A stretch of 46,874 nt of DNA, taken from Candidatus Firestoneibacteriota bacterium. GTDB taxonomy: Bacteria > Oederibacteriota > D2-FULL-39-29 > CAIOVX01. The stretch covers positions 1-46,874 of the forward strand of contig CAIOVX010000073.1 in the NCBI GenBank assembly GCA_903861835.1, in the 5' to 3' direction. Below the pieces are notes generated by a model. The model saw only the letters and a program-made list of their open reading frames with translations. It did not search any database and was not told the DNA's origin. Both the position numbers and the translations under genes were made by a program. Positions within the stretch are counted from its first letter, which is position 1, and each line of letters begins with the position of its first letter. Positions 9,216 through 31,216 of the stretch are shown piece by piece.

Positions 9216-9281
9216 GGCTTCCCACACCAATTACACTAATTCAATCTCCGATTGTCCGCCGTCCCGGTGGATTTTCTTCAT

Positions 9282-9308
9282 CCACACCCTCACGGGTGTG
9301 GGTTTTTT
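9282..9308 (+). terminator. Rho-independent terminator of the lipoprotein gene
   Basis: A perfect 8-bp stem CCACACCC / GGGTGTGG with a TCAC loop is followed by GTTTTTT. It lies 160 bp after the lipoprotein stop codon. Confidence 0.85.
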
Positions 9309-9335: not shown

Positions 9336-10493
9336 TTACTTTATTACTACGCTTAGTTCTTTAGTATTACTCTTCTCCGTCACCTTCCCGAATATATTCT
9401 CCCTAAGAACGACCCCGTCAAAGCGGCTGTCAATGCTGATGTCGCGGTTATCACCGAGCAGGAAATATGAACCGGCAGGAATTTCAGCAGGTCCAAAATT
9501 ATCTCTGTCCCCGAAAACGCTCTTCTTGCCGTTTTGCGCCGGAAGAACCCGGGTCTCCCGAAATAGCACATAGGGCTCGTCAAGCTTGACTCCGTTGAGA
9601 AAGATCTTCTTGTCTTTTATAGAGACCCTATCCCCCGGGAGTCCGATTACCCTGAGTATCACAGGACCTGATTTCTCTCCGGCCATCTTAGCGACGACCA
9701 CATCGCCTCTCGCCACTTCCCTTCCTTTCTTTATTTCAAGGCCTAACTCAGGAATACTTATACCGTAATAAGCCCTGTCAACCGAGACAAAATCATTAGG
9801 GACAATTGCGGGAGCCATGTACTCTCCGGTCTCCATACCGCTTGTGAAAATATACTTCTCAAATACATTCTGATAGGGCAAAACGTGAATGAAGAACAGA
9901 CCAACAAGGATGAGCCCGAGGAACCAACCGCTGAAACTCGGATATTTTATCTTCTCCCCGTTCTTCTTCAGGGAATCCTCGTAAGCGTGGACCGCCGACA
10001 GCAACTTAATAAGAGGCGGAATGAACGGGCCAAGCAGGAAGGTGTCCGAAAAATATGAGGCCGCTGACGAAGCTATTATAAAAAGCAAAGCCGTGAGGAT
10101 AGAGCCGTTGTAGGCCTGCCCCACGCCCGGAAGCAGAAAAGAAACGAAAGCCGAAAGATTGGGATTTCTTCTGCCGGCGAAAGCATTTGCTTTGTTCGGG
10201 TCAAGCGCCTTTCTCGCCAAGAAAAACGCGTCAAGTATGGAATAGAACCAGAAGCCGAAGACAACGAAGATGGCGGAATAGAATGTTACAAAGTTTATAC
10301 CTTCCCTAGAGAACTTCATCGCGAGCAGAACTACGACGAAGGTGTTCGCCGCCAGCAATATCAGCCCTTTTCGTATTTTACCGGAATAGATCTGCCCCAG
10401 ACCTGTCAGAATAAAGGAAAGAAAAGCCGCCCGCCAGGGGTCAAGCTCGTTCTCTATAGGACGAACTACTTTCTCAGTCTGCAAATTCTGCAT
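9336..10493 (-). CDS. Signal peptidase I homologue lacking the catalytic Ser and Lys, with N-terminal membrane domains
   Basis: The start is ATG 10493, which has GGAGG six bases upstream; an earlier in-frame ATG at 10508 has no such site. The protein is 385 residues. Residues 20-170 contain two similar membrane modules, each opening with a GxGQxY motif (TGLGQIYSG and PGVGQAYNG), like TM2/DUF5683-type hairpins. A further membrane span at 188-205 precedes the S26 peptidase domain. Box E, GDNRDISIDSR (347-357), and box D, RVIGLPGD, are clear. However, box B reads EYMAPAI with Tyr225 where the nucleophilic Ser belongs, and Leu280 stands where the general-base Lys precedes RVIGLPGD. It is therefore probably not a working signal peptidase of the classical type. 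It overlaps the upstream deacetylase gene by 20 bp. Confidence 0.85.
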   Translation of the reverse strand: MQNLQTEKVVRPIENELDPWRAAFLSFILTGLGQIYSGKIRKGLILLAANTFVVVLLAMKFSREGINFVTFYSAIFVVFGFWFYSILDAFFLARKALDPNKANAFAGRRNPNLSAFVSFLLPGVGQAYNGSILTALLFIIASSAASYFSDTFLLGPFIPPLIKLLSAVHAYEDSLKKNGEKIKYPSFSGWFLGLILVGLFFIHVLPYQNVFEKYIFTSGMETGEYMAPAIVPNDFVSVDRAYYGISIPELGLEIKKGREVARGDVVVAKMAGEKSGPVILRVIGLPGDRVSIKDKKIFLNGVKLDEPYVLFRETRVLPAQNGKKSVFGDRDNFGPAEIPAGSYFLLGDNRDISIDSRFDGVVLRENIFGKVTEKSNTKELSVVIK

Positions 10494-11304
10494 GTGAATC
10501 CTCCGCATCCCATCTGAATATCTTGACGAAGTCCGGAAGTCTCATAAAATTTGTTACCGGCCTTCTTCTAAGTTTAAACTTGTCCGTATCCGGGAAATTC
10601 TTATCCCAGAGAACTGTTGCAGCGTTCCGATAACCTGCCTTTTTCAGGAGACGGATGACCTCATCATTGAAACTGCCGTAAGGGTAGGCAAAAAACTCAA
10701 CCTTCTTGCCGATATGCGACTCTATCTCTCCTTTCGAGCTTTCCAGCTCGCGCGAGACCCTCTTTTCATAATCCTCCGCTCCCTCGTTCTTTTGCTTTTT
10801 GGAAAGGTGCGGGTGGTTTATGGTATGAGAGCCGATGGTAATTCCCGAATCGGACATCTCTTTTATTTGGTCCCAGGTCAGAGCGCCCTTTGCCTTGAGG
10901 TTGCCGGTCTGAATATAGATGACCGCCGGAATGGAATACTTCCTGAGAATCGGGAAAGCGTACTTATAGATGCAGTCTGCCCAGCCGTCTAAGGAGACGA
11001 TCACACCGTTCTCTTTGAAAGGTTCATTCTTTTCCATCTTTCCGGCAAGCTCGTTCATGCTTGGCGTAGCGTAACTTTCCTTAAGAAACATCATTTGCTC
11101 GTCAAACTTGTCAGGCGTAACGGCGAGATAGATCGCGCGGGTGGATTTTTTCTTGTCGTCTAAACTCAAATATTCTCTGTTTTTTATCTCGGATTCCGGC
11201 GCCACTTCGTGATAATTCAGGATCTTTATCCAGTTGCGCTGAGGCGTTGCAGCGGCCTGGGTCACAAGCGGCAGAAGCAGAAGCAGGGCAAGTAAAGGTT
11301 TCAT
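10474..11304 (-). CDS. Secreted polysaccharide deacetylase-family protein with altered metal site
   Basis: This 276-residue protein has a signal peptide (residues 1 to about 19) and a NodB homology domain. The two histidines of the zinc site (SHTINH, His160 and His164) and the FAYPYG motif are present. Motif 1, normally TFDDG, reads SLDGWAD: the first Asp (residue 106, the catalytic base in this family) is kept, but the metal-binding second Asp is Gly107. Activity on peptidoglycan or another N-acetylated polysaccharide is therefore doubtful. A second, intact paralogue sits after ftsZ. The gene overlaps the signal peptidase homologue, and the nitroreductase ends 12 bp before it in the same direction. 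Confidence 0.85.
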   Translation of the reverse strand: MKPLLALLLLLPLVTQAAATPQRNWIKILNYHEVAPESEIKNREYLSLDDKKKSTRAIYLAVTPDKFDEQMMFLKESYATPSMNELAGKMEKNEPFKENGVIVSLDGWADCIYKYAFPILRKYSIPAVIYIQTGNLKAKGALTWDQIKEMSDSGITIGSHTINHPHLSKKQKNEGAEDYEKRVSRELESSKGEIESHIGKKVEFFAYPYGSFNDEVIRLLKKAGYRNAATVLWDKNFPDTDKFKLRRRPVTNFMRLPDFVKIFRWDAEDSHAEFAD

Positions 11305-11316
11305 TTTCTTTTCCTT

Positions 11317-11829
11317 TTAAAACTTATCTATATGAACTATTTCTTCCAGTTTTTTCCTGTTTTTTGCCGATGCTTTATCAGCCGGGTAGCCGAGCGGAGT
11401 CATAAGGACCGGTTTGATATATTCCGGCAGTTTAAATATTTCTTTCACCTTTAACACGTCAAAAGCTCCTACCCAGCAGGTCCCGAGCCCCTCGACTGTG
11501 GCCGCGAGTATAAGATGATCCATCGCGATAGTGAGGTCAATATCGGCAAAATCAGCGCCGTCCTTCCTCTTCCAGGAGGTCTTCGTATCAACACAACCGA
11601 CAACTATTATCGGAGCGGTCCAAAACCAATCCCGCGGGTAGGCATCCTTTATCTTTTCTTTAACAGCAGGATCTTTTACGACTATAAAATGCCAGGGCTG
11701 AAAGTTGACAGCTGAGGGGGCCAAGCGTGCAGCGTCCAAGACCCGGTTCAAGACCTCTTCAGGGATTGTTTTATTGAGGTCGTATTTTCTGACGCTTCTG
11801 CGTTCGGAGATTATTCTGTAGAGATCCAT
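11317..11829 (-). CDS. Nitroreductase-family FMN oxidoreductase
   Basis: The product is 170 residues from ATG 11829, chosen because GGAGG lies five bases upstream; an ORF extension to 11889 has no such signal. The N-terminal RRSVRKY is the FMN-binding motif of the nitroreductase family, followed by LAPSAVNFQPWHFIVV and, near the C-terminus, MTPLGYPADKA with GLGTCWVGAF in between. Proteins of this type reduce nitro compounds, quinones or flavins using NAD(P)H; the physiological substrate is not predictable. It precedes the deacetylase by 12 bp and probably shares a transcript with it. Confidence 0.9.
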   Translation of the reverse strand: MDLYRIISERRSVRKYDLNKTIPEEVLNRVLDAARLAPSAVNFQPWHFIVVKDPAVKEKIKDAYPRDWFWTAPIIVVGCVDTKTSWKRKDGADFADIDLTIAMDHLILAATVEGLGTCWVGAFDVLKVKEIFKLPEYIKPVLMTPLGYPADKASAKNRKKLEEIVHIDKF

Positions 11830-12254: not shown

Positions 12255-12334
12255 ATTCTGCTATGCCGGACGGAGTACGGCATGATAAATATCTTACCCT
12301 ACAGAACAAGCCGCACGAAGTGCGGCTTACAAAC
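12255..12334 (-). repeat. 80-bp two-hairpin element, copy 4
   Basis: In this full-length copy the first stem has one mismatch (GGAGTACGG), and the second stem is extended to CCGCAC/GTGCGG by a base change. The element overlaps the end of pgeF: its terminal TTTGTAAGCC (minus strand) supplies the last Leu codon and the TAA stop. Confidence 0.9.
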
Positions 12335-13046
12335 TTTTTTTAAGCATTATTGATGTAACCATCCTCCCCGTTCCCTTTCCGTCCCGGCGGTAGGAGTAGA
12401 AGAGATCTTTCCGGCACATTGTGCAGTGAGGATTTCTGATAATGTTTTTTTTTGGTATACCGCTCTTAACCAGCAAGGTTTCGTTCGCTCTCTCAAGGTC
12501 AAGGTAGGATTTCCCTTTCTTTACCGATACACAGGAGCTGCCGAAACGTTTAGCGAATTTCTCGGCAAGATCAGAACTTACTTCGTAGCAGCACTTTTGA
12601 ATCGAAGGTCCAAAACGGACCTGAGTATCCCCGGGGTTGGTACCATAGAGCCGCTTCATTCTGAGAACCGCGTTCTTTGCAATGCCTTTATAGGTGCTTT
12701 TCCAACCGCAGTGAACCGCGCCGATGCATTCCTTCTTTTTGTCGAAGAAAATAACAGGCAGGCAGTCAGCCGTAAATATCGAAAGAAGAAAGCCCGGCTT
12801 ATTGGTGACAAAACCGTCGGCTTCCCGAAGATTTCTGAAAGCAGGCGACTTAGCCGCGAGTATTTTAGCGCCGTGCACCTGCCTGGCATAGACAAGTTTA
12901 TCCGCGGATAGACCGATTTCTTTAAGCAGCCCGGCAATTCCTTTCTCAAACCTTTCAATACTCATATCGTAGGGTTTGAGAGTTGTGAAAGCCGAAAACT
13001 TACTTGGACTGCGCAGACACTGTATTTTTTGGGGTTTCGCCTTCAT
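12327..13046 (-). CDS. pgeF: Peptidoglycan editing factor / YfiH-family purine nucleoside phosphorylase-like protein
   Basis: The start chosen is ATG 13046 (239 residues); an in-frame ATG at 13082 would overlap the amidase gene even further, and neither has a clear ribosome site. The family signature is present: RQVHGAKI, ADGFVT, TADCLPV, HCGWKSTYKGI and FGPSIQKCCYEV, giving the His/Cys/His metal site. Members have been called laccase-like, purine nucleoside phosphorylases, or (PgeF) enzymes that prevent misincorporation of other amino acids in place of L-Ala in peptidoglycan. The last role suits the position at the end of a cell-wall operon, overlapping the amidase gene by 47 bp. The final codons and stop are contributed by an 80-bp repeat element. 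Confidence 0.85.
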   Translation of the reverse strand: MKAKPQKIQCLRSPSKFSAFTTLKPYDMSIERFEKGIAGLLKEIGLSADKLVYARQVHGAKILAAKSPAFRNLREADGFVTNKPGFLLSIFTADCLPVIFFDKKKECIGAVHCGWKSTYKGIAKNAVLRMKRLYGTNPGDTQVRFGPSIQKCCYEVSSDLAEKFAKRFGSSCVSVKKGKSYLDLERANETLLVKSGIPKKNIIRNPHCTMCRKDLFYSYRRDGKGTGRMVTSIMLKKSL

Positions 13047-14256
13047 TGTTGTCCAGGGCTTCGCTGAATTTCTGCAGACCATTGCAGATGCCTTCCGCTA
13101 CCTTCTGCCGGAACTCGGGGTCCTTCAATTTCTGTTCTTCGTTCTCATTTGTTATGAATGCGGATTCAACGAGCACCGAGGGCATAGTTGTGTTGGCAAG
13201 CACATAGAAGGGAGCTCGCATTATCTTCTTGTTCTCCCTGCCTTCCGTGCCGATGTTCTTAATGACTTCATCTTCCACAAATCCCGCCAAAAGGATGCTC
13301 GCATTCTCGTTTGATTTCTTCCCTATGTCCCCGAGTATCAGGTTTATGGCCTTGTCATACAGTCCCGGGGTGTCAAGATTCTCTCTGATGGCCTGGCGGC
13401 GCGCAGACTCATCCGAAGCTTGCGTGCCATAGATGTAGATCTCCGTGCCGGAAACGCGTTTTAAAACCGACGCGTTCATATGGATACTTACAAAGATGTC
13501 TGCCCCGGCAGTGTTCGCAATATAGCACCTCTCGGGCAGGCTGATGTATTTATCTGAGGGCCGGGTATAGACCACTTCCTTCTCCATCCTGTCCAAAACC
13601 AGCTCGCCGAGACGTTTTGCGATGTCCAGAGTGACATCCTTTTCCTCGAGTCTTCCCGGTCCAACCGCGCCTGAATCTCTGCCGCCGTGACCCGCGTCTA
13701 TAACAATTTTTCTTAAAGCGAATTTCTCTCCCCTTATTTCTTTTACGACTTTTGTTCGCGAGTCAGAGAGCGGCGGCGAGGGAGGTTCCGGCCTGCGCTT
13801 TGCCTCGGGCGAGAAGATACTGCCCTTCACAATGAATTCCTTCTTCGGAGTAACATATGCCACTTCGGCGTTCAGCAGTTTATGAAGGATTACACCTATG
13901 CCGTTCCGGGAAACATAGAGCTTGCTCTCTCTCATCGCCGGATTCTCGGGAAGGAGCTTGTTGGAATTATTGAGAAAGACCGTGCAGGACCTTTTGCCGG
14001 CTGAAAGTATAACCTTTTTATTCTTGGAGCTGTAATTATAGTCAAACTTGAGCGCTTTGCAAAGAGCCTTCAGGTGATAATAATCGTCAAACCCTCTGGT
14101 AAAACCGGAGAGCCTTATGCCTGTGCTCCCGTTATTATCCGTAACTTTTATGTCAAAGGAGGAGGTCGCAGTCCCGCCGCCTGCGGCAAGAGGCCTCACG
14201 AGGAAGAGGCAAAACGCCATAAGCGCTATGGTCCTAAAAATCCTTATCGCCGTCAT
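13000..14256 (-). CDS. N-acetylmuramoyl-L-alanine amidase (Amidase_3) with N-terminal stress/binding domain
   Basis: The 418-residue secreted zinc amidase has a signal peptide at residues 1 to about 25. Residues about 35-150 resemble a copper amine oxidase N-terminal-like domain (paired short repeats ending in VAYVTPKKEFIVKG). A Pro-rich linker follows, then the Amidase_3 domain from about residue 185. Zinc ligands are His in DAGHGGRDSG, Glu in RLEEKDV, His in SIHMNAS, and the catalytic Glu in VLVESAFI. The enzyme cuts the bond between MurNAc and L-Ala and is used in daughter-cell separation or recycling. It overlaps the upstream deacetylase by 23 bp and pgeF downstream, so the three are one unit. 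Confidence 0.93.
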   Translation of the reverse strand: MTAIRIFRTIALMAFCLFLVRPLAAGGGTATSSFDIKVTDNNGSTGIRLSGFTRGFDDYYHLKALCKALKFDYNYSSKNKKVILSAGKRSCTVFLNNSNKLLPENPAMRESKLYVSRNGIGVILHKLLNAEVAYVTPKKEFIVKGSIFSPEAKRRPEPPSPPLSDSRTKVVKEIRGEKFALRKIVIDAGHGGRDSGAVGPGRLEEKDVTLDIAKRLGELVLDRMEKEVVYTRPSDKYISLPERCYIANTAGADIFVSIHMNASVLKRVSGTEIYIYGTQASDESARRQAIRENLDTPGLYDKAINLILGDIGKKSNENASILLAGFVEDEVIKNIGTEGRENKKIMRAPFYVLANTTMPSVLVESAFITNENEEQKLKDPEFRQKVAEGICNGLQKFSEALDNNEGETPKNTVSAQSK

Positions 14257-15007
14257 TTAGTGATTTCCTCTGCTGCACAGTAAAGGTCTTAATGAAACTT
14301 TCCGGCGTGGTGCTTCTCTGGACAACCCTCCGGTTTAACCTCATCGGGTCATCCCCGGGGAAATTCTCGTAACCTCTTACCGTAAGAATAGCTTCATAGC
14401 CGGCTTTGTTTGCCTCTTCCTTGACGGTCTCGTTGTATCTGCCGTAGGGATAGGCAAAATAGCGAACCGGAAGACCGAATTCGGCTTCAAGCAGATTTTT
14501 GGAATCGACCAGCTCGTGGCGCAAACGCGCGAGATATTGTTCCTCGCTCTCCTCTTTCAACCGCTTATGCAGATAGCCGTGCGAAACCGAATGAGATCCG
14601 ATTTCCGCCCCGTAAGCAAGCATCTGCTTCATATGGTTCCACTTCATGGCGTGCGGTCCTTCTTTGACTATATTGGTATATATGAAGACGGAAAAGGGAA
14701 ACCGGTACTTCTTCAGTATGGGAAAGGCGTTATTGTAGATGCTTACATCCCCGTCGTCAAAGGTTATGACGACTGAGTTGTTCTTCAGTTCTTTTGCACG
14801 CGTTATATAATCCAATGCGTCTGAAAGGCTGATTATGTCATAGCTCGCCTTGAGATACTCCATCTGGTTCTCAAAATCCTCGACCGAGACGTCGTAAGCG
14901 GCCTCCGTTTTGACGAGCACGCGGTGATAAAGTATTATATTTATCCACGGGTCGGCGGCGTTCAGAGACAAACCTATGGAAATAACCGCTATGAGTATTT
15001 TCAGCAT
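14234..15007 (-). CDS. Secreted polysaccharide (peptidoglycan) deacetylase
   Basis: The start is ATG 15007, preceded by AAGGA; an in-frame TTG at 15022 is less likely. The protein is 257 residues with a signal peptide (MLKILIAVISIGLSLNA). The NodB domain has the intact motif TFDDG (82-86) and the zinc histidines in SHSVSH (139 and 143), plus FAYPYGRYN. It should remove N-acetyl groups from a polysaccharide; the peptidoglycan setting suggests GlcNAc or MurNAc residues in the wall. It follows ftsZ after a stem-loop and overlaps the amidase. It is a paralogue of the altered deacetylase at 10474-11304. Confidence 0.92.
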   Translation of the reverse strand: MLKILIAVISIGLSLNAADPWINIILYHRVLVKTEAAYDVSVEDFENQMEYLKASYDIISLSDALDYITRAKELKNNSVVITFDDGDVSIYNNAFPILKKYRFPFSVFIYTNIVKEGPHAMKWNHMKQMLAYGAEIGSHSVSHGYLHKRLKEESEEQYLARLRHELVDSKNLLEAEFGLPVRYFAYPYGRYNETVKEEANKAGYEAILTVRGYENFPGDDPMRLNRRVVQRSTTPESFIKTFTVQQRKSLNDGDKDF

Positions 15008-15029
15008 ATTTTTCCTTGTCAAACTTGAA

Positions 15030-15059: not shown

Positions 15060-16349
15060 CTATTCTACAATATTTTCAAGGTTTCTGCGAAGAAAAGCCG
15101 GGATATCTATATCCTCTTTTTCCAGGTATTTATTCAGTCTTTCCCCCTCGTTTAATACTTCATCTTTAATGTTCTGAATGGTGATTCCGGTTGAAGGCAG
15201 TGTTGCTGCAGGAGCCTGCGCGGGTTCTGCCTGCACGGCTTCCGTAGCCGGCATCGAGACCGACGACAATACCGCTTCTAGAACCTCGGAAATAGTCTTG
15301 ACCGCGACGACTTCCTCAACCTTGGCCTCTTCCTGTACCGCCGGAATGGCCTCCTGTTTCGGAGCTTCTGCCTCTTTCGACTTGACCGAAGCGCCCGGAG
15401 TAAAACCCGTGGCAATCACCGTGATCCTGATTTCGTTCTTCATATTCTCGTCTATTACCGCGCCGACGATAATGTTCGCGTCCGGGTGGGCCCTTTCCTG
15501 GATCAGGGCTGCCGCTTCGCTGACTTCCACCAGACTCATGTCACTGCCTCCGGTGATGTTGATAAGGATGCCTTTCGCGCCATCCACCGCCACGCTCTCA
15601 AGGAGCGGGCTGGAGATAGCCATCTCGGCCGCCTTCTGAGCCCTGTTCTCGCCGCTGCCGATGCCGGTACCCATCAGGGCGCCGCCCATCTCAGCCATTA
15701 TGGTTCTTACATCCGCGAAGTCAACATTCACAAGGCCGGGGACCGTGATGATGTCAGAGATACCCTGTATGGCCTGCCTGAGCACATCATCAGCGATATT
15801 GAAAGCCTCGGAGATCGGCGTGTTCTTTTCAACGATGGAGAGCAGTTTCTCGTTTGGAACGGTGATGAGCGTGTCAACGCGGGATTTGAGGTCTTCTATG
15901 CCGGCGTCGGAGTTCGCTTTCCTTCTCTTCCCTTCAAAGTTGAAGGGCTTTGTGACCACGCCGACCGTCAGCGCTCCTATCTCCTTCGCTATCTCGGCAA
16001 CTATGGGAGCCGCGCCGGTACCGGTGCCTCCGCCCATTCCCGCCGTAACAAATACCATGTCCGCGCCCGCAAGCAGTTCCTTGAGGTGCTCACGGTCTTC
16101 TTCAGCGGCCCGTTTCCCGATATCAGGACGAGCGCCAGAACCCAAACCCTTAGTAAGTTTGGTGCCGATCTGGAGTTTAGCGCCGGCATTGTTCCGCTTG
16201 AGCTGCTGCATATCTGTGTTGACCGCTATGAATTCAACATTGCTTATCTGGGCCCGGATCATCCGGTTAATTGCGTTATTTCCAGCGCCGCCCACGCCTA
16301 CCACTTTGATATTTGCGGAAAAACTCGGTTCGTTTGAAAATTCTATCAT
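15060..16349 (-). CDS. ftsZ: Cell division GTPase FtsZ
   Basis: This 429-residue tubulin homologue forms the division ring at mid-cell. The GTP-binding signature GGGTGTGAA is at about 106-114, [13 protein letters not shown] at the N-terminus and the T7 loop [11 protein letters not shown] in the middle. After the globular core (to about residue 315) a long Ala/Glu/Val-rich linker leads to the C-terminal peptide DIPAFLRR, which binds FtsA. GGGAGGC lies just before the ATG. It is the last gene of the classical division cluster and follows ftsA by 66 bp. Confidence 0.98.
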
Positions 16350-16415
16350 AGTTGCCTCCCTGGTTTTTGCGCCTTGCGGGCGCGCTTATTGATAATAGGT
16401 TCCATCGTTGAATTT

Positions 16416-17666
16416 TTAGAATGCATTGTCCAGCCAGTGCTTAATCTTCTGCAGCATTTCGCCAAACCCTCCACCGGTTCTTGCCTGTTGCAAGGGTTGT
16501 CCCACAATCCTGTTCCTCGCGCCGTAAACCATAAGGCCTATTGCCGTCGAGTAAATCGGGCTATTCGCGACGCCCACAAGCCCCGATATTCCGATCGGGT
16601 AGCCGACCCTTACTGATAACCTTAGAACCTTCTCTGCGACCTCCTCTATGCCGCTGAGCAGAGCGCCTCCGCCGGTTACCACCACTCCCGCGGCAGCCCG
16701 ACCTTCCAAGCCGTGATCCTTCAGTTCTTTCTGCACAAAACCGAAGATCTCTTCCATTCTCGGCTGAATTATTTCCGCAACCACTCTTCTCGGCACTATC
16801 CTCTCTGTCTTTCTGCCGATGAGATTCACCTTCACCTCTTCCAGCTCGTTGACCAGCGGAGCGTAAGCGCAACCTAAGGTCTTTTTTATTTCCTCAACCT
16901 GTTCAATAGGAGCCCGAAGCCCTATAGCGAGATCATCCGTGACCTTTTGCCCGCCTATCGGGATAATCGCGGTATGCCTTACGCCGCCGTCAAGATAAAC
17001 TATCATGTCGGTGGTTCCGCCGCCGATGTCTACGCAGACCACGCCGAGTTCTTTCTCGTCATAGGTCAAACAGGCTTCCGCGGAAGCAAGCGGCTGGAGG
17101 ACAAAATCCTTAAAGAAGAAACCGGCTTTATCAATGCTCCTGACTATGTCCTGCTCTCTGGCGACGCTCGCGGTTATAAAATGAACCCTAGAACGCAGGC
17201 GGGAACCGTACATGCCGAGCGGATTTTTTATCTCGTTCTGGTCGTCAACAATATATTCCTGGGGGAGAACGTGAAGGACAGCTCGATCGCTTTGCGTGGC
17301 CGCATTGAGTTCTATGGCCTCGCTTACCCTATAAATGTCAGCCTGGTCCACCTGCTTGTTCTTCCCGGCTATCGCGACCATTGACTCGGCGTTGATGCCT
17401 TTTACGTGCTCGCCGGTTATCCCCGCGTAGACGGCGGCAACTTCAACGCCTGCCATGCGCTCGGCGTCATCGACGGCTTTTTTTATGCCCTCAATGGTCG
17501 CCTCTATGTCGCTGATTATGCCTTTGCGGACGCCCTTGGAGGGAGTCTGCCCTATACCGGTGATGTTCAGCGTATTATCGGGATTTAACTCGCCGATGAT
17601 ACAGCAGATCTTGGTGGTTCCTATATCCAGCCCCACCACTATATTATCTTTTTCTTCTTTCGCCAT
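16416..17666 (-). CDS. ftsA: Cell division protein FtsA
   Basis: This 416-residue actin-like ATPase tethers FtsZ to the membrane and recruits later division proteins. ATG 17666 is preferred because AGGAG lies 7 bases upstream; an in-frame GTG at 17681 overlaps that site. Actin-fold motifs are GLDIGTTKICCIIGE (phosphate 1), VDIGGGTTDMIVY (phosphate 2) and VVTGGGALLSGI (adenosine). The SHS2/1c domain lies between the first two. The C-terminus (MLQKIKHWLDNAF) is the amphipathic membrane-targeting helix. It lies between ftsQ and ftsZ as in most bacteria. Confidence 0.97.
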   Translation of the reverse strand: MAKEEKDNIVVGLDIGTTKICCIIGELNPDNTLNITGIGQTPSKGVRKGIISDIEATIEGIKKAVDDAERMAGVEVAAVYAGITGEHVKGINAESMVAIAGKNKQVDQADIYRVSEAIELNAATQSDRAVLHVLPQEYIVDDQNEIKNPLGMYGSRLRSRVHFITASVAREQDIVRSIDKAGFFFKDFVLQPLASAEACLTYDEKELGVVCVDIGGGTTDMIVYLDGGVRHTAIIPIGGQKVTDDLAIGLRAPIEQVEEIKKTLGCAYAPLVNELEEVKVNLIGRKTERIVPRRVVAEIIQPRMEEIFGFVQKELKDHGLEGRAAAGVVVTGGGALLSGIEEVAEKVLRLSVRVGYPIGISGLVGVANSPIYSTAIGLMVYGARNRIVGQPLQQARTGGGFGEMLQKIKHWLDNAF

Positions 17667-17706
17667 CGCTTTTCTCCTCACCCCGGCATTTTATCTATGC
17701 GCTTTA

Positions 17707-17745
17707 CGTTACGAACGTTACAAACGTTATTAACGTTATAAACTT
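17707..17745. repeat. AACGTT array inside the division cluster
   Basis: Four AACGTT-type units at 9-bp spacing end directly at the ftsQ stop codon. This is the only repeat inserted among the otherwise overlapping or tightly packed genes from mraZ to ftsZ. Confidence 0.85.
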
Positions 17746-18573
17746 TTACTTTTTAAACATCACCGCCGCTTCATCCCGAAACCGCATATCAACATAAGCT
17801 ATCTTGTTGCACCTCTCATTCAGCGTTTTCAAGAGCAGCGTTAACTTATCAAGTTTTTCGTCCCAGTTGCCCACGCCAATTCTATAGACCTTCCCGTCTT
17901 CAGTGACCAGCTTAAGTTCTTCCGCCTCGGACACATCTATGGCGGTCACTTCTGAAAGCAAAGGGGATTTCAGTTTCCCAAGCAGCGCTGCCATTTCAAG
18001 CGCCGCCTGCAATTCTTTAGAGCCGGTTTTTCTCCCGAATTCCGCCGAAACCAGCTTCACTCCGGTTATAACGTAGAGCTTCTTCCCCACTAACTGCGAC
18101 TTTAGGCTCGGAAAGATAAACCCGGAGGCGCTTATCTGCAGTTTCCGGTCCGCGCCTATAAAAGCCTCGGGGAGCCGTTCCTTTACGCTAATCTCAACCG
18201 TTTCAGGCAAGACTTTGTTCAGCGTTACTCTTTCGAACTGCGGATTGTTGGATAGTCTTTCCTTCGCTTCTTCCAGGCCAGACTGAAAGAGGCTCTTGCC
18301 CGTCTCTATTTTGGCGAGGGCGAGCACCTCATTCTTGCTTACATATTTATTTCCGGAAATGGTTACTTTCTTTAATATGAAAGAATCCGCCGCGGAAAGC
18401 GTTTTATACGCATAATACGCCCCGACGCCGGATCCGAGTATAAGCAGCACGACCAGCGCGCGCAAGAGAAATCTGGCGGCGTGAAAGAGCGGCTGCGGAA
18501 GAGTCGACGAAACCGAGGTTCTCAGTTTCCTGGCAGACCGCCCTGTATATTTCGTGTAAAGTATCTTAGACAT
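17746..18573 (-). CDS. ftsQ: Cell division protein FtsQ
   Basis: This 275-residue bitopic inner-membrane protein links early and late divisome proteins. A basic cytoplasmic tail (1-32) is followed by one membrane span (about 33-55) and the POTRA domain (SFILKKVTISGNKYVSKNEVL, about 64-130). The FtsQ beta domain continues to the C-terminus, where VAYVDMRF is the typical last strand. The start overlaps the ddl stop by 8 bp. It is separated from ftsA by an AACGTT array. Confidence 0.92.
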   Translation of the reverse strand: MSKILYTKYTGRSARKLRTSVSSTLPQPLFHAARFLLRALVVLLILGSGVGAYYAYKTLSAADSFILKKVTISGNKYVSKNEVLALAKIETGKSLFQSGLEEAKERLSNNPQFERVTLNKVLPETVEISVKERLPEAFIGADRKLQISASGFIFPSLKSQLVGKKLYVITGVKLVSAEFGRKTGSKELQAALEMAALLGKLKSPLLSEVTAIDVSEAEELKLVTEDGKVYRIGVGNWDEKLDKLTLLLKTLNERCNKIAYVDMRFRDEAAVMFKK

Positions 18574-19498
18574 TCTTCTTAAACGCTCCGTAAAGCATCC
18601 TTGCTATCAGTGTTTTAAAATCCAGCCCGGCAAGTTTCGCCGCTTCCGGAAGCAGCGAAGTTCCTGTAAGACCGGGCAGGGTGTTCGCTTCCAGCACCTC
18701 CAACCTCCCGCCCTTCCCGACAATGATATCAACTCTTGAAAAAGAACTAAGCCCGAGAGCTTTGTGAACTTCCACCGCCAGAGCCTGCGCTTTTTTGTAA
18801 TTCTTTCTATCAAGCCGCGCGGGGATTATGTGCTCCGACATCCCCTTCGCATATTTTGCTTTATAATCATAGAAGGAGGTCTTGGGAATTATCTCTATTA
18901 TTTCCAGCGCGCGTTCCTCAAATACCGGCACCGTAATTTCCCTGCCGCTCACAAACTTCTCAGCCAGGACGCGATCGCAATATCTGAACGCGTCCTTCAG
19001 CGCCTTTTTCAGAGCGCCCGGTCTTTTTACTATAGATATGCCTATGGTAGAGCCGCCGTCAACCGGCTTGATGACCATGGGAGGTTTCATCTTTGGAGTT
19101 TCGCCGCGGCTTAGGACCTCAAAGGCTGGAGTAGGAATGTTCTTCTGCAGCAGCACTAGTTTTGAAACAGCCTTATCCGCGGCCAGCGCGCTCGCAAGAG
19201 TTCCCGAACCGATATACGGGACGCCCATAAGGTCAAGCCCGCCCTGTATGGTGCCGTCCTCTCCAAATCTTCCGTGCAGCATCAGGAAGACAACCTCAAT
19301 CCTGTTCTTTTCGACGAAGGCGAAGACTTTCTTCCTGCTCTTTTCGTTAAGGTCAAACTTGAAGTATTTCAAGTTCAGCGCCTTGAAAGCCGCTTCCACA
19401 GCCGGAAAAGCCATCAGCGCGACCTTTCGCTCGCTGGAGAACCCGCCGTAAACCAGGGCGACCCTTTTGTTTTTCAGGAAACCTGCTGCGTCCTTCAT
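18566..19498 (-). CDS. ddl: D-alanine--D-alanine ligase
   Basis: This 310-residue ATP-grasp ligase makes the D-Ala-D-Ala dipeptide for MurF. ATG 19498 forms an ATGA overlap with the murB stop and has AGAGG upstream; longer in-frame extensions to 19681 lie within murB and have unrelated sequence. Recognisable parts are LVYGGFSSERKVAL at the N-terminus, MLHGRFGEDGTIQGGLDLMG, the ATP-binding PPMVIKPVDGGSTIGI, and the metal/substrate site EANTLPGLTGTSLLPE near the end. It is located as usual between murB and ftsQ. Confidence 0.96.
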   Translation of the reverse strand: MKDAAGFLKNKRVALVYGGFSSERKVALMAFPAVEAAFKALNLKYFKFDLNEKSRKKVFAFVEKNRIEVVFLMLHGRFGEDGTIQGGLDLMGVPYIGSGTLASALAADKAVSKLVLLQKNIPTPAFEVLSRGETPKMKPPMVIKPVDGGSTIGISIVKRPGALKKALKDAFRYCDRVLAEKFVSGREITVPVFEERALEIIEIIPKTSFYDYKAKYAKGMSEHIIPARLDRKNYKKAQALAVEVHKALGLSSFSRVDIIVGKGGRLEVLEANTLPGLTGTSLLPEAAKLAGLDFKTLIARMLYGAFKKNV

Positions 19499-20370
19499 CT
19501 GTCCTCTCCCACTATCTTTATCTCTTCTTGTAGCGCTATCCCTGTCTTCTCCAGGACAACGCTCTTTACCTTCTTTATAAGTTCCAGCACATCCGAGGCA
19601 TTCATTCCCCCGTTTATTATGTAGTTCGCGTGAAGCATTGAAATCTCGGCGCTGCCAACCTTTAAACCCTTCAGCCCGCATTCCTCTATAAGCCGTCCGG
19701 CAGACTTGCTTTCCGGGTTCTTAAAAACGCTTCCGGCGCTCCTGCCTTTGGGCTGGGTTTTGTTCCGCTCGGCGATTATTCCCGCCGCTACCGCCCTGAT
19801 CTCTTCAGCAACTCCGGGAACCAGCTTAAACTTAGCACCGGTGATTATTCCTTTGCCCTCGAGACTTGATCTCCTGTAACCGAACTCTATCGCGGACACC
19901 GGCAGTTCTTTCTCCTCTGACGCTTCCGTAAGCAGCGAGATCGAGGAAACTGCGTCTTTTATTTCCCCCTGCCGCGTTCCCGCGTTCCCGAAAACTGCCC
20001 CGCCGACCGTTCCCGGTATCCCCGCAAGCTTCTCTAGACCGGAAAGACCCGAATCCGCGGCGAAGGAAAGCGCCTTGACAAGAGACACGCCGGCCCCGCA
20101 GGAAAATATTTCTCCGATGACTTCCATCTCAGTGAAAGCTCCGGCGAGTTTTATGCAGGCGCCTCTGTAACCGCCGTCTTTCACGAGGAGATTTGTTCCT
20201 CCCCCTATAATAAAGAACGGAACCTTATCTTTTTTGCACTGCGCGAGTACTGCTTTCAGTTCTGACAGCGTCGCGCATTCCGCATAGATGTCTGCCGGCC
20301 CTCCGACCCCGAAGGAAGTATGCTTCGCGAGCGGTTCCAGAAGCATTATGGAATAGCCTGCCTCGCTCAA
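19495..20370 (-). CDS. murB: UDP-N-acetylenolpyruvoylglucosamine reductase MurB
   Basis: This 291-residue FAD enzyme reduces enolpyruvyl-UDP-GlcNAc to UDP-MurNAc with NADPH. FAD-binding motifs HTSFGVGG, IGGGTNLLV and AGIPGTVGGAVFGNAG are clear. The proton-donor serine is in RSAGSVFKNP, and the C-terminal Glu lies in LQEEIKIVG. The short form without the extra loop corresponds to type II MurB. It follows murC by 10 bp and overlaps ddl. Confidence 0.97.
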   Translation of the reverse strand: MSEAGYSIMLLEPLAKHTSFGVGGPADIYAECATLSELKAVLAQCKKDKVPFFIIGGGTNLLVKDGGYRGACIKLAGAFTEMEVIGEIFSCGAGVSLVKALSFAADSGLSGLEKLAGIPGTVGGAVFGNAGTRQGEIKDAVSSISLLTEASEEKELPVSAIEFGYRRSSLEGKGIITGAKFKLVPGVAEEIRAVAAGIIAERNKTQPKGRSAGSVFKNPESKSAGRLIEECGLKGLKVGSAEISMLHANYIINGGMNASDVLELIKKVKSVVLEKTGIALQEEIKIVGEDR

Positions 20371-20380
20371 AAACCCTCCG

Positions 20381-21754
20381 TTAAAAATTGGAACTGATCC
20401 GTTTATAAAACTCTTCGCCGAACTTCCTGATATCTCCTGCTCCTAGCGTCATTACCAGGTCTCCGCTTTTCGCGGTGCCGGAAAGATAGGCCGGGATGGC
20501 TTCTTTGTTTTTTATAAAGACCACTTTGTTGCCGTTCGCCTTTATGCTGTTGGCGATGAGTTCCGCCGAAACATTAGCCAGCGGTTTCTCGCCCGCCGCG
20601 TAGATATCAGTAACTATCACCAGGTCCGCGTCAACAAAGGCCGTTCCGAACTTGGGATATAAAAGCTTGCTCCTTGTGTACCTGTGCGGCTGGAATACCG
20701 CTATGGTGCGCTTCATTTTGAGATTCCTGGCCGCCTTGAGACTGGCGGCTATCTCGGTCGGGTGATGCCCGTAATCGTCTACCACCAGGATTCCCTTACT
20801 CTGACCGATGCGTTCAAATCTCCTATGAACCCCGGTGAACTTTGCCAGAGCTTTCTTCACAATCGGCCATTTAATGCCGAGTTCGAGCGCCATTCCCGCG
20901 ACCGCGAGAGAATTGAGCACATTATGCGTGCCCGGAACATTCAGAGAAACCTTCCCGTATTTCTTGCCTTTGAAAGCAAGCTCGTAGGAGCTCCCGAACT
21001 TGTCGAACTTTACCTTTGAACCCTTCACATCGGCCGCCGCTTTTATCCCGTAGGTAAGGTACTTCTTGGAGACGTTGCCTATTATGCTCATCAGAGTAGC
21101 GTCATCCGCGCAGAGCATTGAAAAACCGTAGAAGGGTATCTTGTTAATAAAGGTGATGAACATGCTCTTTAAGTTTTCCATATTGCCGTGGAAATCCAGG
21201 TGGTCATCGTCGATATTGGTGACGATGTTCACGGTTGGAGACAGGTGGAGGAAAGAACCGTCGCTCTCGTCCGCCTCTGCCACGAGGTATTCTCCGCGCC
21301 CGAGCTTGGCGTTGGACCCGATCACATTCAGCTTTCCGCCGATCACGACCGTGGGGTCAAAACCGGCTTCGCTCATCATAATCGCGGCCATCGAAGTGGT
21401 TGTGGTTTTTCCGTGCGTACCCGCGACCGCTATGCCTTTCTTCAGGCGCATAAGCTCCGCAAGTATCTCGGCCCTGGGTATTACCGGTATTTTTCTCTTC
21501 TTCGCCTCAACGACTTCCGGATTATCAGGAAGCACGGCACTTGATATTACCACCACATCTGCCGCGCCGAGATTTTTCGCCGCGTGGCCGAGATAGATCT
21601 TCGCCCCTTTCTTCGCGAGGCGGTCCGTGAGATCGCCCGCCCTAAGGTCGGAACCTGAGACCTTGTAGCCGAGATTGAGCAATACTTCCGCAATCCCGCT
21701 CATGCCAATTCCGCCAATTCCGACAAAATGTACTTTATAAGTTTTTTTCAGCAT
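20381..21754 (-). CDS. murC: UDP-N-acetylmuramate--L-alanine ligase MurC
   Basis: This 457-residue cytoplasmic Mur ligase adds L-Ala to UDP-MurNAc. Motifs are the N-terminal GIGGIGMSGIAEVL nucleotide fold, the ATP loop AGTHGKTTTTSM (about 111-122), EADESDGSFL, NIDDDHLD and GVHRRFE, with DDYGHHPTEI in the C-terminal domain. The length is typical. The start overlaps the murG stop by 7 bp. Confidence 0.98.
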   Translation of the reverse strand: MLKKTYKVHFVGIGGIGMSGIAEVLLNLGYKVSGSDLRAGDLTDRLAKKGAKIYLGHAAKNLGAADVVVISSAVLPDNPEVVEAKKRKIPVIPRAEILAELMRLKKGIAVAGTHGKTTTTSMAAIMMSEAGFDPTVVIGGKLNVIGSNAKLGRGEYLVAEADESDGSFLHLSPTVNIVTNIDDDHLDFHGNMENLKSMFITFINKIPFYGFSMLCADDATLMSIIGNVSKKYLTYGIKAAADVKGSKVKFDKFGSSYELAFKGKKYGKVSLNVPGTHNVLNSLAVAGMALELGIKWPIVKKALAKFTGVHRRFERIGQSKGILVVDDYGHHPTEIAASLKAARNLKMKRTIAVFQPHRYTRSKLLYPKFGTAFVDADLVIVTDIYAAGEKPLANVSAELIANSIKANGNKVVFIKNKEAIPAYLSGTAKSGDLVMTLGAGDIRKFGEEFYKRISSNF

Positions 21755-22824
21755 ATTAGCCCTTTTAACTCCTTTAGGATTTCTAGCCCGGCGTCATTCC
21801 CAAAAATATTTTTCGCCGCGGCAGACATTTCACCGAGTTTTTTTCCGTCAAATATTATTCCATTTATCGCTGCCGCGAGAGATTCACCGGTCAGCCCTTG
21901 CTCGTCAAGGTAGAGCCCGGCCCCGCCTTCGCTCACAAATCTCCCGTTGACCCTCTGGTGGTCAGCCGCCGAGTAAGGAAACGGCACAAGCACCGAGGGA
22001 AGACCGCACTTTAAAACCTCAAAGACCGTTGAAGCCCCTGCCCGAATCACCGCGAGATCAGCCGCCGCGTAGATAGTTTCGATATTATCAAAAAAGGGCG
22101 AAAGCACTGCCGGATTACCGTTTATTCCCGGAAGCAAGGAATACTCTTTGTATTCATTCCTTCCGGTCATCCAGACCACCTGAATCCCTTCTTTAAGAAA
22201 CGGCAGAGCTTCAGAGACCGCCTTGTTCAACCCCCTGCCGCCCTGGCTTCCGCCGATTACCGCCAGAGTCCTGATACCGGGTTTAAGCCCTAAAGACTTA
22301 ACAGCCTCTTCCTTCTTCACGCTTCCTATAGCTGCACGAACCGGCAAACCCGTTAACACCTTCCTGCCGTGCAGCCTCTTGCTTGCCCCGGCAAAAGCCA
22401 TAAAGGTCACATCAACGACACGCGAGAGCAACCTGTTCGCGAGCCCCGGATAGGCGTTCTGTTCGTGGAGCGCCGTCTTAATTCCCGCAAGTTTCGCCGC
22501 CAGCACCGACGGCGCGCAAACATAACCCCCGAACCCAATCACTAAGTCCGGCTTTTCCGTTTTCAAAAGCTTCAAAGAACCAAAGAGGCCTTTCAGCACT
22601 CTGTACATGCTCACGAAATTCTTGAATGTCAGGCGGCGGTAAAACTTCCCGCTTTCAACCGCCAGAAACCTAAGACCCGCGCCTTCCGCTATTCCTTTTT
22701 CCGGTCCGTCGGCCGTTCCCACGAAAACTGTCTCCCACCCCTCTGCCGAGAGAAGTGTCGCTACCGCAACCGCCGGGTATATGTGCCCGCCGGTGCCGCC
22801 GCTAGTTATAACGACTTTTTTCAC
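21748..22824 (-). CDS. murG: MurG lipid II synthase (undecaprenyl-PP-MurNAc-pentapeptide GlcNAc transferase)
   Basis: This 358-residue GT-B glycosyltransferase on the inner face of the membrane turns lipid I into lipid II. GGTGGHIYPAVAVA at the N-terminus, HEQNAYPGLANR, GGSQGGRGLN and the donor-binding RAGASTVFEVLKCGLPSVLVP region are all present. It starts with GTG, preceded by AAGGTGG, 23 bp inside the end of ftsW. Confidence 0.97.
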   Translation of the reverse strand: MKKVVITSGGTGGHIYPAVAVATLLSAEGWETVFVGTADGPEKGIAEGAGLRFLAVESGKFYRRLTFKNFVSMYRVLKGLFGSLKLLKTEKPDLVIGFGGYVCAPSVLAAKLAGIKTALHEQNAYPGLANRLLSRVVDVTFMAFAGASKRLHGRKVLTGLPVRAAIGSVKKEEAVKSLGLKPGIRTLAVIGGSQGGRGLNKAVSEALPFLKEGIQVVWMTGRNEYKEYSLLPGINGNPAVLSPFFDNIETIYAAADLAVIRAGASTVFEVLKCGLPSVLVPFPYSAADHQRVNGRFVSEGGAGLYLDEQGLTGESLAAAINGIIFDGKKLGEMSAAAKNIFGNDAGLEILKELKGLIC

Positions 22825-23929
22825 GATCCACCTTTGAAGCGATATTCATAAGTATCCCGGCCGCTGCCAGGTTTATTATCAGAGACGAACCGCCATAACT
22901 TATGAACGGCAGCGTCATACCTTTCGTCGGGCCCATTCCGAGAACCACGCCCATATTGAAGAAGGCCTGCAGGCCAATGTAGCCGCTGAGCCCCAGAGCG
23001 AGCAGGCGCCCGAAGATGTCTTCGGTTCTAAGCGCCGTCTGTATCCCCTTGTAAACAAAAAAACAAAAGAGCCCGAGCATCAGCGTCGCTCCGATGAGGC
23101 CGAGCTCTTCACCGATAATCGCAAAAATAAAGTCCGTATGGGCCTCCGGAAGATAAAGCAGTTTCTGCACCCCCTTGCCCAGGCCTTTCCCGAGTATGCC
23201 TCCCGACCCGAAGGCCAGGAAGGACTGCACTATCTGGAAAGCCTTGCCGCTCTGTTCTTTCCACGGGTGCAGGAAAGCCACCAGCCGGTTGTTTCTATAG
23301 CCCGACTTCATAATAAGAAGAACTACGGCCGGAACCGCCGTAAGGATGAAGCCGAGCACATGCGCCGGCTTTCCTCCGCCGACAAAAAATATAGATATCC
23401 CGATTATTGCAATCATAACTGCCGACCCCATGTCAGGCTGGAGCAACAAAACCCCCGAGAGGAAGCCGATTATAATAATATAGGGCAGCATTCCTGACGT
23501 GAAGCTTTTCATTACTGCCTGCTTCTTCGCCACTGAATCGGCCATGAAGATGATAAAAGATAGTTTCAAGAACTCGCTCGGCTCGATATTGAAGAAGGAA
23601 ACACCTATCCACCTTTTCGCCCCGTTCACTGATTTCCCCACGTGCGGGACAAATACCAGGCCCAGCAGCACGATTGCGGTAAGGAGCAGAAAGCGCGCGT
23701 GCTTCTTGTAATTCTCGTAATTCAATTTCCTGCAAAAATAGAAAACAAGAGCCCCGAGCGACAGCCAGAAGAGCTGTTTTTTGATAAAAAAGAACGAGTC
23801 GTGGTATTTGTAGTCCGCGTAGAGGGCGCTGGAGGAAAAGACCATCACCACTCCCGAGAACACAAGAATAACGAGCGCCGCCATAAGCGCGCCGTCCAAC
23901 CCCGGCCTTTTTACTTTTCTTAGATCCAA
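22802..23929 (-). CDS. ftsW: FtsW septal peptidoglycan glycosyltransferase (SEDS family)
   Basis: This 375-residue polytopic protein of the SEDS family polymerises lipid II at the septum together with FtsI. About ten hydrophobic segments are visible. Signature stretches include NGAKRWIG, LQPDMGSA (with the conserved Asp used in catalysis in SEDS enzymes), PEAHTDFIFAIIGEELG and LPFISYGGSS. The start is TTG 23929 with a GAGGAG site upstream inside the last codons of murD, a 10-bp overlap. Confidence 0.96.
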   Translation of the reverse strand: MDLRKVKRPGLDGALMAALVILVFSGVVMVFSSSALYADYKYHDSFFFIKKQLFWLSLGALVFYFCRKLNYENYKKHARFLLLTAIVLLGLVFVPHVGKSVNGAKRWIGVSFFNIEPSEFLKLSFIIFMADSVAKKQAVMKSFTSGMLPYIIIIGFLSGVLLLQPDMGSAVMIAIIGISIFFVGGGKPAHVLGFILTAVPAVVLLIMKSGYRNNRLVAFLHPWKEQSGKAFQIVQSFLAFGSGGILGKGLGKGVQKLLYLPEAHTDFIFAIIGEELGLIGATLMLGLFCFFVYKGIQTALRTEDIFGRLLALGLSGYIGLQAFFNMGVVLGMGPTKGMTLPFISYGGSSLIINLAAAGILMNIASKVDREKSRYN

Positions 23930-25293
23930 GCAGCAGACTCCTCTTTCTTGACTTTCGCAACGGCTTCTTTAAAAACCCTGCCGCGGTCGCGATAATCTTT
24001 AAACATATCGAAACTCGCGCAGGCAGGCGAGAGCATTACCACATCCCCGGGTTCAGCTGATTTATAGGCCAGCCTTACAGCCTCTTCCAGAGTGGCGGCG
24101 TCCACAAGTTCTGTGCTGCCTGAAAGCGCGGCCCGTATCTCTCCTTTCGCCTCGCCGATAAGAATAATCTTCTTCACTTTTTGTTTTACTGTGTCTGCAA
24201 GTTTCGCGAAATTCGAACCCTTGTTGCGCCCGCCCATAATAGCCACGACCGGGTTCGCGTAACTCAGGAAAGATTTTTCCACCGCGTCAATGTTCGTGCC
24301 CTGGGAGTTGTTGATGAATTTAACTCCGTTGACCTCGCCGACAAACTCCTGCCTGTGCTCCACACCCTCAAACTTCGCCAGCACCTCGCCTATGACTGAA
24401 GGCGTAATACGCATCAGCACGCCAATGAGAGAGGCAACCATCGCGTTTTCAACATTGTGCATACCTTTTACCAGCAAGTCGGAGGCCCTGATGATGCGGT
24501 ACTCGCCGCCGCGGAACCGGACGGTAATCCATCCGTCTCGCAAAAAAGCGCCTTCTTCAAGCTCAGCCTTGCTGTTGAAATAAATAATGCTGCTCGAAGC
24601 CATGCTCGTGTAAAGCGGCGTATATTTGTCATTCGCGTTGAGGATCAGGTACTCATTCCTCGTCTGGTTACGGAAGATCATGGCCTTGGCCTCGATATAT
24701 TCCTGGAGGCTCTTGTAGCGGTCCATATGATCTTCACTGACGTTGGTGATGGCCGCTATGTAGGGTTTGAATTCCTTTATAGTCTCCAGCTGGAAACTTG
24801 AGAGCTCAAGCACGAAGAGCGTGTCCGGCTCGCCGTCAACCATAGAGGCCAGAGGATTTCCTATATTTCCGGCGGTCTTTACCCTTGAACTGCCCCTTGA
24901 AAGAATCAGGCCAGTCATGGTAGTGGTGGTGGTTTTGCCCTTGGTTCCTGTTATTCCTATAAAGTTCCCTTTCAGAAGACTGTAAGCCAGTTCTATCTCT
25001 CCGATAACCGGGATACCCTTTGCCCTGACCTTCTCAAAGAGCGGCGTATTAAGAGGAACCCCCGGAGAAACTACTACCAGGTCGGCGCCCAGGAAAGCTT
25101 CCTCGCTGTGGCCGCCTGTCTCAAGTTTGTAATTCACGCCGGAAAGCATTCCGGTAAATTCCGCAAGCTCCTGCTCCGGCTTGATATCGCTCGCGGTAAC
25201 AAGCGCGCCTCTGCCTGCCAACACCTTCACCGAGCAGGCTCCGCTCCGGGCGAGCCCGGCTATGGTTATTTTCTTTCCTTTAAAATCGTTCAA
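23920..25293 (-). CDS. murD: UDP-N-acetylmuramoylalanine--D-glutamate ligase MurD
   Basis: This 457-residue Mur ligase adds D-Glu. The N-terminal Rossmann-like part GLARSGACSVKVLAG is followed by the ATP loop ITGTKGKTTTTTM (about 113-125), ELSSFQLETI, NVSEDHMDRY and EHRQEFVG. The C-terminal domain has NNSQGTNIDAVEKSF and SPACASFDMFKDYRDRGR. The length is usual for the family. It ends inside the ftsW start and begins 3 bp after mraY. Confidence 0.97.
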   Translation of the reverse strand: MNDFKGKKITIAGLARSGACSVKVLAGRGALVTASDIKPEQELAEFTGMLSGVNYKLETGGHSEEAFLGADLVVVSPGVPLNTPLFEKVRAKGIPVIGEIELAYSLLKGNFIGITGTKGKTTTTTMTGLILSRGSSRVKTAGNIGNPLASMVDGEPDTLFVLELSSFQLETIKEFKPYIAAITNVSEDHMDRYKSLQEYIEAKAMIFRNQTRNEYLILNANDKYTPLYTSMASSSIIYFNSKAELEEGAFLRDGWITVRFRGGEYRIIRASDLLVKGMHNVENAMVASLIGVLMRITPSVIGEVLAKFEGVEHRQEFVGEVNGVKFINNSQGTNIDAVEKSFLSYANPVVAIMGGRNKGSNFAKLADTVKQKVKKIILIGEAKGEIRAALSGSTELVDAATLEEAVRLAYKSAEPGDVVMLSPACASFDMFKDYRDRGRVFKEAVAKVKKEESAAWI

Positions 25294-25296
25294 TGT

Positions 25297-26370: not shown

Positions 26371-26371
26371 G

Positions 26372-30870: not shown

Positions 30871-30883
30871 CCCCCGAGACCGC

Positions 30884-31216
30884 TTAGAATACGTACCCGA
30901 TTGTATTTGCTATCCAATCCCTGGCTGCGCCGAAAAATCCGGAGTCAGCCCTCTTTTTTTCCGGCACCAGAATATTCTCGAATTTGTCCGGAATCACCAG
31001 ACCAAGATCGTTACGAGCCATTTTTTCGACCCGTTCAGCAGAACGAAGCCCTGATATTTCCGTTCCGGTCATTCTGTTCAGGTTTAAGAGTTCTGCTTTG
31101 CGAAACTTCAGCCGGCTTATCTCGATACCGGTAGAGACACACTGAGCCGATATCCACACATAGACTATCAACCCCAGGACAATGCCTATGAGCCACCAGC
31201 TTTTTATTGGTTTCAC
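30884..31216 (-). CDS. ftsL: FtsL-like divisome protein
   Basis: This 110-residue small bitopic protein has one membrane span at about 7-28 (WWLIGIVLGLIVYVWISA), followed by a short coiled coil (about 33-75, ISRLKFRKAELLNLNRMT) with the LGLVIP ending motif common in FtsL. It starts with GTG in a GTGA overlap with the rsmH stop. The family is poorly conserved, and the assignment rests on size, topology and the position between rsmH and ftsI. Its TAA is in the same frame as the ftsI membrane anchor. Confidence 0.85.
   Translation of the reverse strand: MKPIKSWWLIGIVLGLIVYVWISAQCVSTGIEISRLKFRKAELLNLNRMTGTEISGLRSAERVEKMARNDLGLVIPDKFENILVPEKKRADSGFFGAARDWIANTIGYVF

What the first reader, a model, noticed from the sequence alone, without database searches (positions are those of the whole stretch)
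9336..10493. Signal peptidase I homologue missing both catalytic residues and fused to duplicated membrane modules
Boxes D and E of signal peptidase I are well kept, but the Ser-Lys dyad is replaced by Tyr225 (in EYMAPAI) and Leu280 (before RVIGLPGD). The N-terminus carries two GxGQxY membrane modules not found in ordinary LepB. Conservation of the fold with loss of both catalytic residues suggests a binding or chaperone role, or a regulator of another signal peptidase.
Basis: partly seen in the sequence, partly recalled or inferred. Interest (0 to 1): 0.65.

Follow-up and report, generated by a model that had tools for sequence, protein, structure and literature searches.

The report
Genus-conserved dead signal peptidase, cell-wall cluster
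In a little-known lake bacterium, a membrane protein built like the enzyme that trims export tags from proteins has lost both cutting residues yet is kept under strong selection in every close relative examined, right behind the cell-division genes, so it probably holds or positions an exported partner instead of cutting it.

Summary
The 385-aa protein at 9336-10493 (-) is an S26 signal-peptidase homologue with Tyr225 and Leu280 at the Ser and Lys positions, and two homologous GxGQxY membrane modules. It is not decay: all four genomes of this Firestonebacteria genus keep Tyr and Leu, dN/dS is 0.07-0.10, and gene order and a 20-nt overlap with the upstream gene are conserved. Two intact lepB genes exist elsewhere in the genome. 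Of 77 S26 frames collected, 68 keep Ser/Lys. The modules are not specific to the dead form: three relatives have them with an intact dyad.

New here: the gene ends an extended division/cell-wall cluster and overlaps a deacetylase-like gene that has itself lost a metal-ligand Asp. In the sister family that deacetylase has its own membrane anchor; in this genus only a signal peptide. I propose that the dead peptidase is a non-cutting, membrane-embedded binding platform, most likely for this partner (client inferred). Its nucleophile loop and substrate strand are rewritten while box E is intact, the reverse of SipA. Inactive signal peptidases are known (SipA, SpsA); this is a new variant.

The parts
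9336..10493 (-). pseudo-signal peptidase gene, 385 aa (start at 10493; an upstream in-frame ATG at 10508 is not shared by orthologues)
10194..10454 (-). membrane module 1 (aa 14-100), GLGQIYSG, DUF5683-like
9918..10169 (-). membrane module 2 (aa 109-192), GVGQAYNG, homologous to module 1
   Evidence: hhalign E 8e-14
9882..9929 (-). last transmembrane helix (aa 189-204) leading into the S26 domain
   Evidence: model secondary structure
9378..9857 (-). S26 beta domain (aa 213-372)
   Evidence: Pfam PF10502; fold match to SipA and signal peptidases
9819..9821 (-). Tyr225 codon, at the catalytic Ser position
9654..9656 (-). Leu280 codon, at the catalytic Lys position
9414..9455 (-). box E (GDNRDISIDSRFDG, aa 347-360), intact except the Trp
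10474..10493 (-). 20-nt overlap with the upstream deacetylase-like gene, same length in the four genomes
10474..11304 (-). NodB/CE4 deacetylase-like gene with motif 1 SLDGW instead of TFDDG and a signal peptide without a long anchor
10984..10986 (-). Gly107 codon of the deacetylase-like protein, where the metal-ligand Asp is expected
11317..11829 (-). nitroreductase-family gene, conserved upstream neighbour
12327..13082 (-). PgeF/YfiH-type laccase-domain gene (Cu-oxidase_4)
13000..14256 (-). N-acetylmuramoyl-L-alanine amidase (Amidase_3)
14234..15022 (-). intact deacetylase paralogue (TFDDGD)
15060..32100 (-). division and cell-wall cluster; tested and named: ftsZ, ftsA, ddl, murB, murC, murG, ftsW, mraY, ftsI-type PBP, rsmH

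Best explanation
A selectively maintained pseudo-signal peptidase. Shown: the Ser-Lys dyad is replaced by Tyr-Leu in the whole sampled genus; the fold and box E are kept; the gene is constrained in every domain; it overlaps a deacetylase-like gene and lies at the end of an extended cell-division/cell-wall cluster. Inferred: it does not cut. Its membrane modules and last transmembrane helix hold the beta domain against the outer face of the inner membrane, where the rebuilt cleft binds an exported protein without cleaving it. The likeliest client is the co-encoded deacetylase-like protein, which in the sister family carries its own membrane anchor but in this genus has only a signal peptide. 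The pseudo-peptidase would supply the membrane tether in trans and place the partner near cell-wall synthesis.
For: Y/L fixed in 4 of 4 congeners; dN/dS 0.07-0.10, within the range of the two active LepB paralogues (0.04-0.17). Two intact lepB, one directly behind an elongation factor LepA-like gene. No Lys within five residues of position 280 in any orthologue (sequences). AlphaFold model has the S26 fold; inactive SipA is the match covered best (TM-score 0.77-0.79 by target length). Changes cluster at the substrate strand and nucleophile loop (aa 217-233: 9 of 10 conserved columns changed) and at K280, while box E aa 347-360 keeps 10 of 11. 20-nt overlap and gene order nitroreductase, deacetylase-like, pseudo-peptidase conserved. 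The partner lost the second Asp of TFDDG in both families of the order. Sister-family partners have 82-92 residues before the NodB domain with a strongly hydrophobic N-terminal stretch (KD19 2.3-2.7); in this genus it is 27-28 residues, KD19 1.5-1.8, with an AXA-type site. Both genes follow ftsZ-linked cell-wall genes.
Against: No direct evidence of any interaction. The anchor-for-platform exchange is one contrast between two clades (n=1). The deacetylase-like protein lacks the pseudo-peptidase in the sister family, so it can work without it. Sequence cannot exclude residual or unusual activity. In the rewritten substrate strand the conserved Ile becomes Glu221, which could equally mean that the cleft is closed and another surface does the binding.
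Confidence: 0.45

Rival explanations
1. Regulator or decoy of the active signal peptidases: it binds signal peptides or forms mixed oligomers with LepB and tunes cleavage.
For: Fold and box E kept; two active paralogues in the same genome.
Against: No genomic link to either lepB; the strand and loop that bind signal peptides are the most changed part.
Confidence: 0.15
2. Specialised chaperone for another exported client, as SipA is for pilins, with the deacetylase-like gene only a neighbour.
For: SipA precedent: inactive, cleft kept, needed for pilus polymerisation (PMC4049620); fold match.
Against: No pilus or sortase gene next to it; in SipA the cleft is kept and the box E Ser lost, here the opposite. 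The overlap with the deacetylase-like gene favours that partner.
Confidence: 0.2
3. Still an enzyme with another nucleophile and base.
For: Strong conservation; Ser353 and Asp355 of box E, which support the Lys in active enzymes, are kept.
Against: No Lys or His close to position 280; the nearest hydroxyls shared by all orthologues are three and seven or eight residues before position 225; the substrate strand is rewritten.
Confidence: 0.07
4. Membrane-module protein whose S26 domain is only a relic or oligomerisation scaffold; the two DUF5683-like modules do the work.
For: The modules match a separate family (DUF5683) and are as constrained as the S26 domain.
Against: The S26 domain is equally constrained (pN/pS 0.14-0.21) and its box E is nearly invariant.
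Confidence: 0.1
5. Recent decay (pseudogene).
For: Long stem branch of the clade in the S26 tree.
Against: Open frames, dN/dS 0.07-0.10, Y and L fixed in four genomes although dS exceeds 1 in most pairs.
Confidence: 0.03

Closest known systems
Streptococcus pyogenes SipA (PDB 4N31, 4K8W)
   Same: S26 fold without the Ser-Lys dyad; intact signal peptidase elsewhere in the cell; the fold match covered best
   Different: SipA has Asp/Gly, a single N-terminal helix, a pilus cluster, a conserved cleft and a lost box E Ser (PMC4049620). Here Tyr/Leu, two extra membrane modules, cell-wall cluster, rewritten substrate strand, intact box E.
Staphylococcus aureus SpsA
   Same: Inactive signal peptidase I homologue beside an active one (PMC12445088)
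   Different: SpsA is described as dispensable; no double modules or deacetylase partner known to me.
Double-module S26 proteins L008, L035 (sister family) and L040 (same phylum)
   Same: Same layout, aligning over the full length at 27-30% identity
   Different: Intact Ser and Lys; different gene neighbourhood.
L109, double-module S26 protein from another phylum (G073)
   Same: Same layout and loss of the Ser
   Different: Ser to Ala with Lys kept; a single genome.

Membership tests
Type I signal peptidase (S26) as an active enzyme | Catalytic Ser in box B | tested here: not met
   Tyr225 in all four congeners
Type I signal peptidase (S26) as an active enzyme | Catalytic Lys in box D | tested here: not met
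   Leu280 in all four congeners
Type I signal peptidase (S26) as an active enzyme | S26 domain homology and fold | tested here: met
   Pfam E 7e-30; Foldseek probability 1.00
Type I signal peptidase (S26) as an active enzyme | Cleaves signal peptides | not testable with these tools
   needs biochemistry
Inactive signal peptidase homologues (SipA/SpsA type) | S26 fold with the dyad lost, active signal peptidase elsewhere | tested here: met
SipA pilus-assembly factors | Gene within a pilus/sortase cluster | tested here: not met
   neighbours are division/cell-wall genes; no whole-genome pilus search was made
SipA pilus-assembly factors | Conserved peptide-binding cleft | tested here: inconclusive
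   9 of 10 conserved columns in aa 217-233 changed, which speaks against it, but the cleft could not be measured on coordinates
Double-module (DUF5683-like) S26 fusions | Two homologous GxGQxY modules before the S26 domain | tested here: met
Active CE4/NodB deacetylase (partner gene) | TFDDG motif with metal-ligand Asp | tested here: not met
   SLDGW in four congeners, TFDGA in the sister family; activity not tested

The most novel reading that the evidence does not exclude
Two dead enzymes act as one unit: a pseudo-signal peptidase serves as a trans-acting membrane anchor for a pseudo-deacetylase at the site of cell-wall synthesis, replacing a cis anchor that the sister lineage still has.
Probability: 0.2. 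Interest if true: 0.7.

Novelty: new variant of a known kind. Interest (0 to 1): 0.45.

Why it matters
Inactive signal peptidases are described mainly from Gram-positive bacteria, with one worked-out role (pilus assembly). Here one is fixed in a genus of an uncultured phylum, with another substitution pair, another architecture and a cell-wall context, beside a second enzyme-like protein that has lost a metal ligand. It suggests that the signal peptidase fold has been turned to non-cutting use more than once and gives a specific partner to test. It also warns that automatic annotation (sigpep_I_bact, an equivalog model whose cut-off this protein passes) would name it an active signal peptidase.

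Tried and rejected
Decay: rejected by dN/dS and fixation. Sequencing error: rejected, separate assemblies agree. Only signal peptidase of the genome: rejected, two intact. Modules as a mark of the dead form: rejected (L008, L035, L040). Placing the dead clade by the S26 tree: failed, its stem of 2.4 changes per site joined another long branch, so the claim that the fusion is older than the loss rests on shared layout, not on the tree. Distances in the model: not possible, no coordinates in the Python box. Phage collection: only weak hits (about 33% identity) to the S26 part. A broad search of 384 genomes showed one further full double-module form among the listed matches, L109; relatives of that genome gave no second example. 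Some paper searches gave nothing.

Full report
Check. The reading frame 9336-10508 on the minus strand encodes an S26 signal peptidase homologue (Pfam 7e-30; NCBIfam sigpep_I_bact 2.5e-30). Tyr225 lies where the Ser should be and Leu280 where the Lys should be. The two N-terminal modules are homologous to each other and match DUF5683. One notebook entry misnumbers the Tyr; 225 is right.

Source. The close relatives that could be named are metagenome-assembled genomes of Candidatus Firestonebacteria. The window is contig C73 of a 2.18 Mb genome, 98% complete.

Orthologues. Three other genomes of the genus encode it at 77-84% identity. One of them (G001) has it on two contig ends whose overlapping parts differ, probably from strain mixture; only one of the two pieces covers position 280. 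Tyr is present wherever that position is sequenced, and so is Leu. Pairwise dN/dS is 0.07-0.10, against 0.08-0.17 and 0.04-0.10 for the two active paralogues and 0.03-0.06 for the deacetylase-like neighbour; several synonymous distances are large or saturated, so these values are approximate. Both modules and the S26 domain are constrained.

Intact paralogues. The genome has two other S26 genes with Ser and Lys: C91, next to a LepA-like elongation factor gene, and C87.

Census. Of 77 S26 frames collected, nearly all from the phylum, 68 have Ser and Lys. The others are five frames of this clade, two short homologues with Ala and Arg (L065, L072), and two pieces of one broken frame (L055). Among the further S26 proteins fetched from the broader search, only L109 lacked the Ser.

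Origin of the fusion. L008 and L035 (sister family) and L040 (another family) have the same layout and an intact dyad and align over the full length. The simplest reading is that the fusion came first and catalysis was lost later in this genus. The S26 tree does not confirm it, because the dead clade sits on a very long branch; a separate fusion is not excluded.

Which residues changed. Of 54 S26 columns at least 80% conserved in 67 active homologues, the dead clade keeps 31. Losses gather in aa 217-233 (substrate strand and nucleophile loop, 9 of 10 changed), at position 280 and in a C-terminal YW motif. Box E keeps all but its Trp, including the Ser and Asp that support the Lys in active enzymes. 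No Lys lies within five residues of position 280 in any orthologue, and the nearest shared hydroxyls before position 225 are at 222 and at 217/218, so an alternative dyad looks unlikely from sequence.

Structure. An AlphaFold2 model from 53 sequences (pLDDT 78.5, pTM 0.56) shows helical modules, a last membrane helix and the S26 beta fold; position 225 follows the first strand and 280 lies in a later strand, as Ser90 and Lys145 do in E. coli signal peptidase. Matches are signal peptidases and SipA, with SipA covered best (TM-score 0.77-0.79 by target length).

Context. Upstream on the same strand are a deacetylase-like gene (20-nt overlap, same in four genomes), a nitroreductase, a PgeF-type gene, an amidase, an intact deacetylase, then ftsZ and the division/cell-wall cluster. 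In the sister family the same cluster holds both deacetylases but no S26 gene among the frames listed. The one strong terminator-like hairpin between the gene and its convergent neighbour (9280-9303) is on the plus strand, so it more likely serves the neighbour.

The partner. Its motif 1 is SLDGW in this genus and TFDGA in the sister family, against TFDDG in active enzymes, so the second Asp is missing. CE4 enzymes coordinate the metal with an Asp-His-His triad, and a member without metal and with an altered motif 1 is known in Bacillus anthracis (PMC6115787); that the second Asp is the ligand is from my own knowledge of the family. The His motif is kept. In the sister family the protein has an N-terminal anchor-like stretch and a linker; in this genus only a signal peptide. 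This contrast, with the overlap, is the basis of the trans-anchor proposal. It is one comparison and remains an inference.

Comparison with the known. SipA is inactive, keeps its peptide cleft, has Asp/Gly for Ser/Lys and an altered box E Ser, and is needed for pilus polymerisation (PMC4049620). SpsA of S. aureus lacks two conserved catalytic residues and is dispensable (PMC12445088). By the tests made the present protein is an inactive signal peptidase homologue with a different build and setting; whether it works like SipA is open.

Verdict. Observation confirmed. A non-catalytic role is well supported (about 0.9 that it is not a signal peptidase); the specific client is uncertain.

Noticed in passing
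window 10474-11304 (-): Deacetylase-like protein with SLDGW in place of TFDDG, conserved in the genus; the sister family has TFDGA. An apparent pseudo-deacetylase near an intact paralogue at 14234-15022.
   Followed up: yes
L109 (G073:C17): Double-module S26 protein in another phylum with Ser to Ala and Lys kept; a second S26 match of that genome is on another contig (C26).
   Followed up: partly
L065 (G012:C106) and L072 (G010:C42): Short S26 homologues with Ala and Arg at the Ser and Lys positions, apparently separate losses.
   Followed up: no
window 6714-8018 (-): RuBisCO large-chain family protein (PF00016), next to a homocitrate/isopropylmalate synthase-like gene at 5192-6571 (named by eye).
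   Followed up: no
window 8274-9122 (+): Lipoprotein-like protein with a weak TPR match, convergent with the pseudo-peptidase gene; the corresponding stretch in L034 shows no frame of 100 aa or more.
   Followed up: no
L007 and L034 (G001): Overlapping parts of the pseudo-peptidase on two contigs of one MAG differ, which suggests strain mixture.
   Followed up: no
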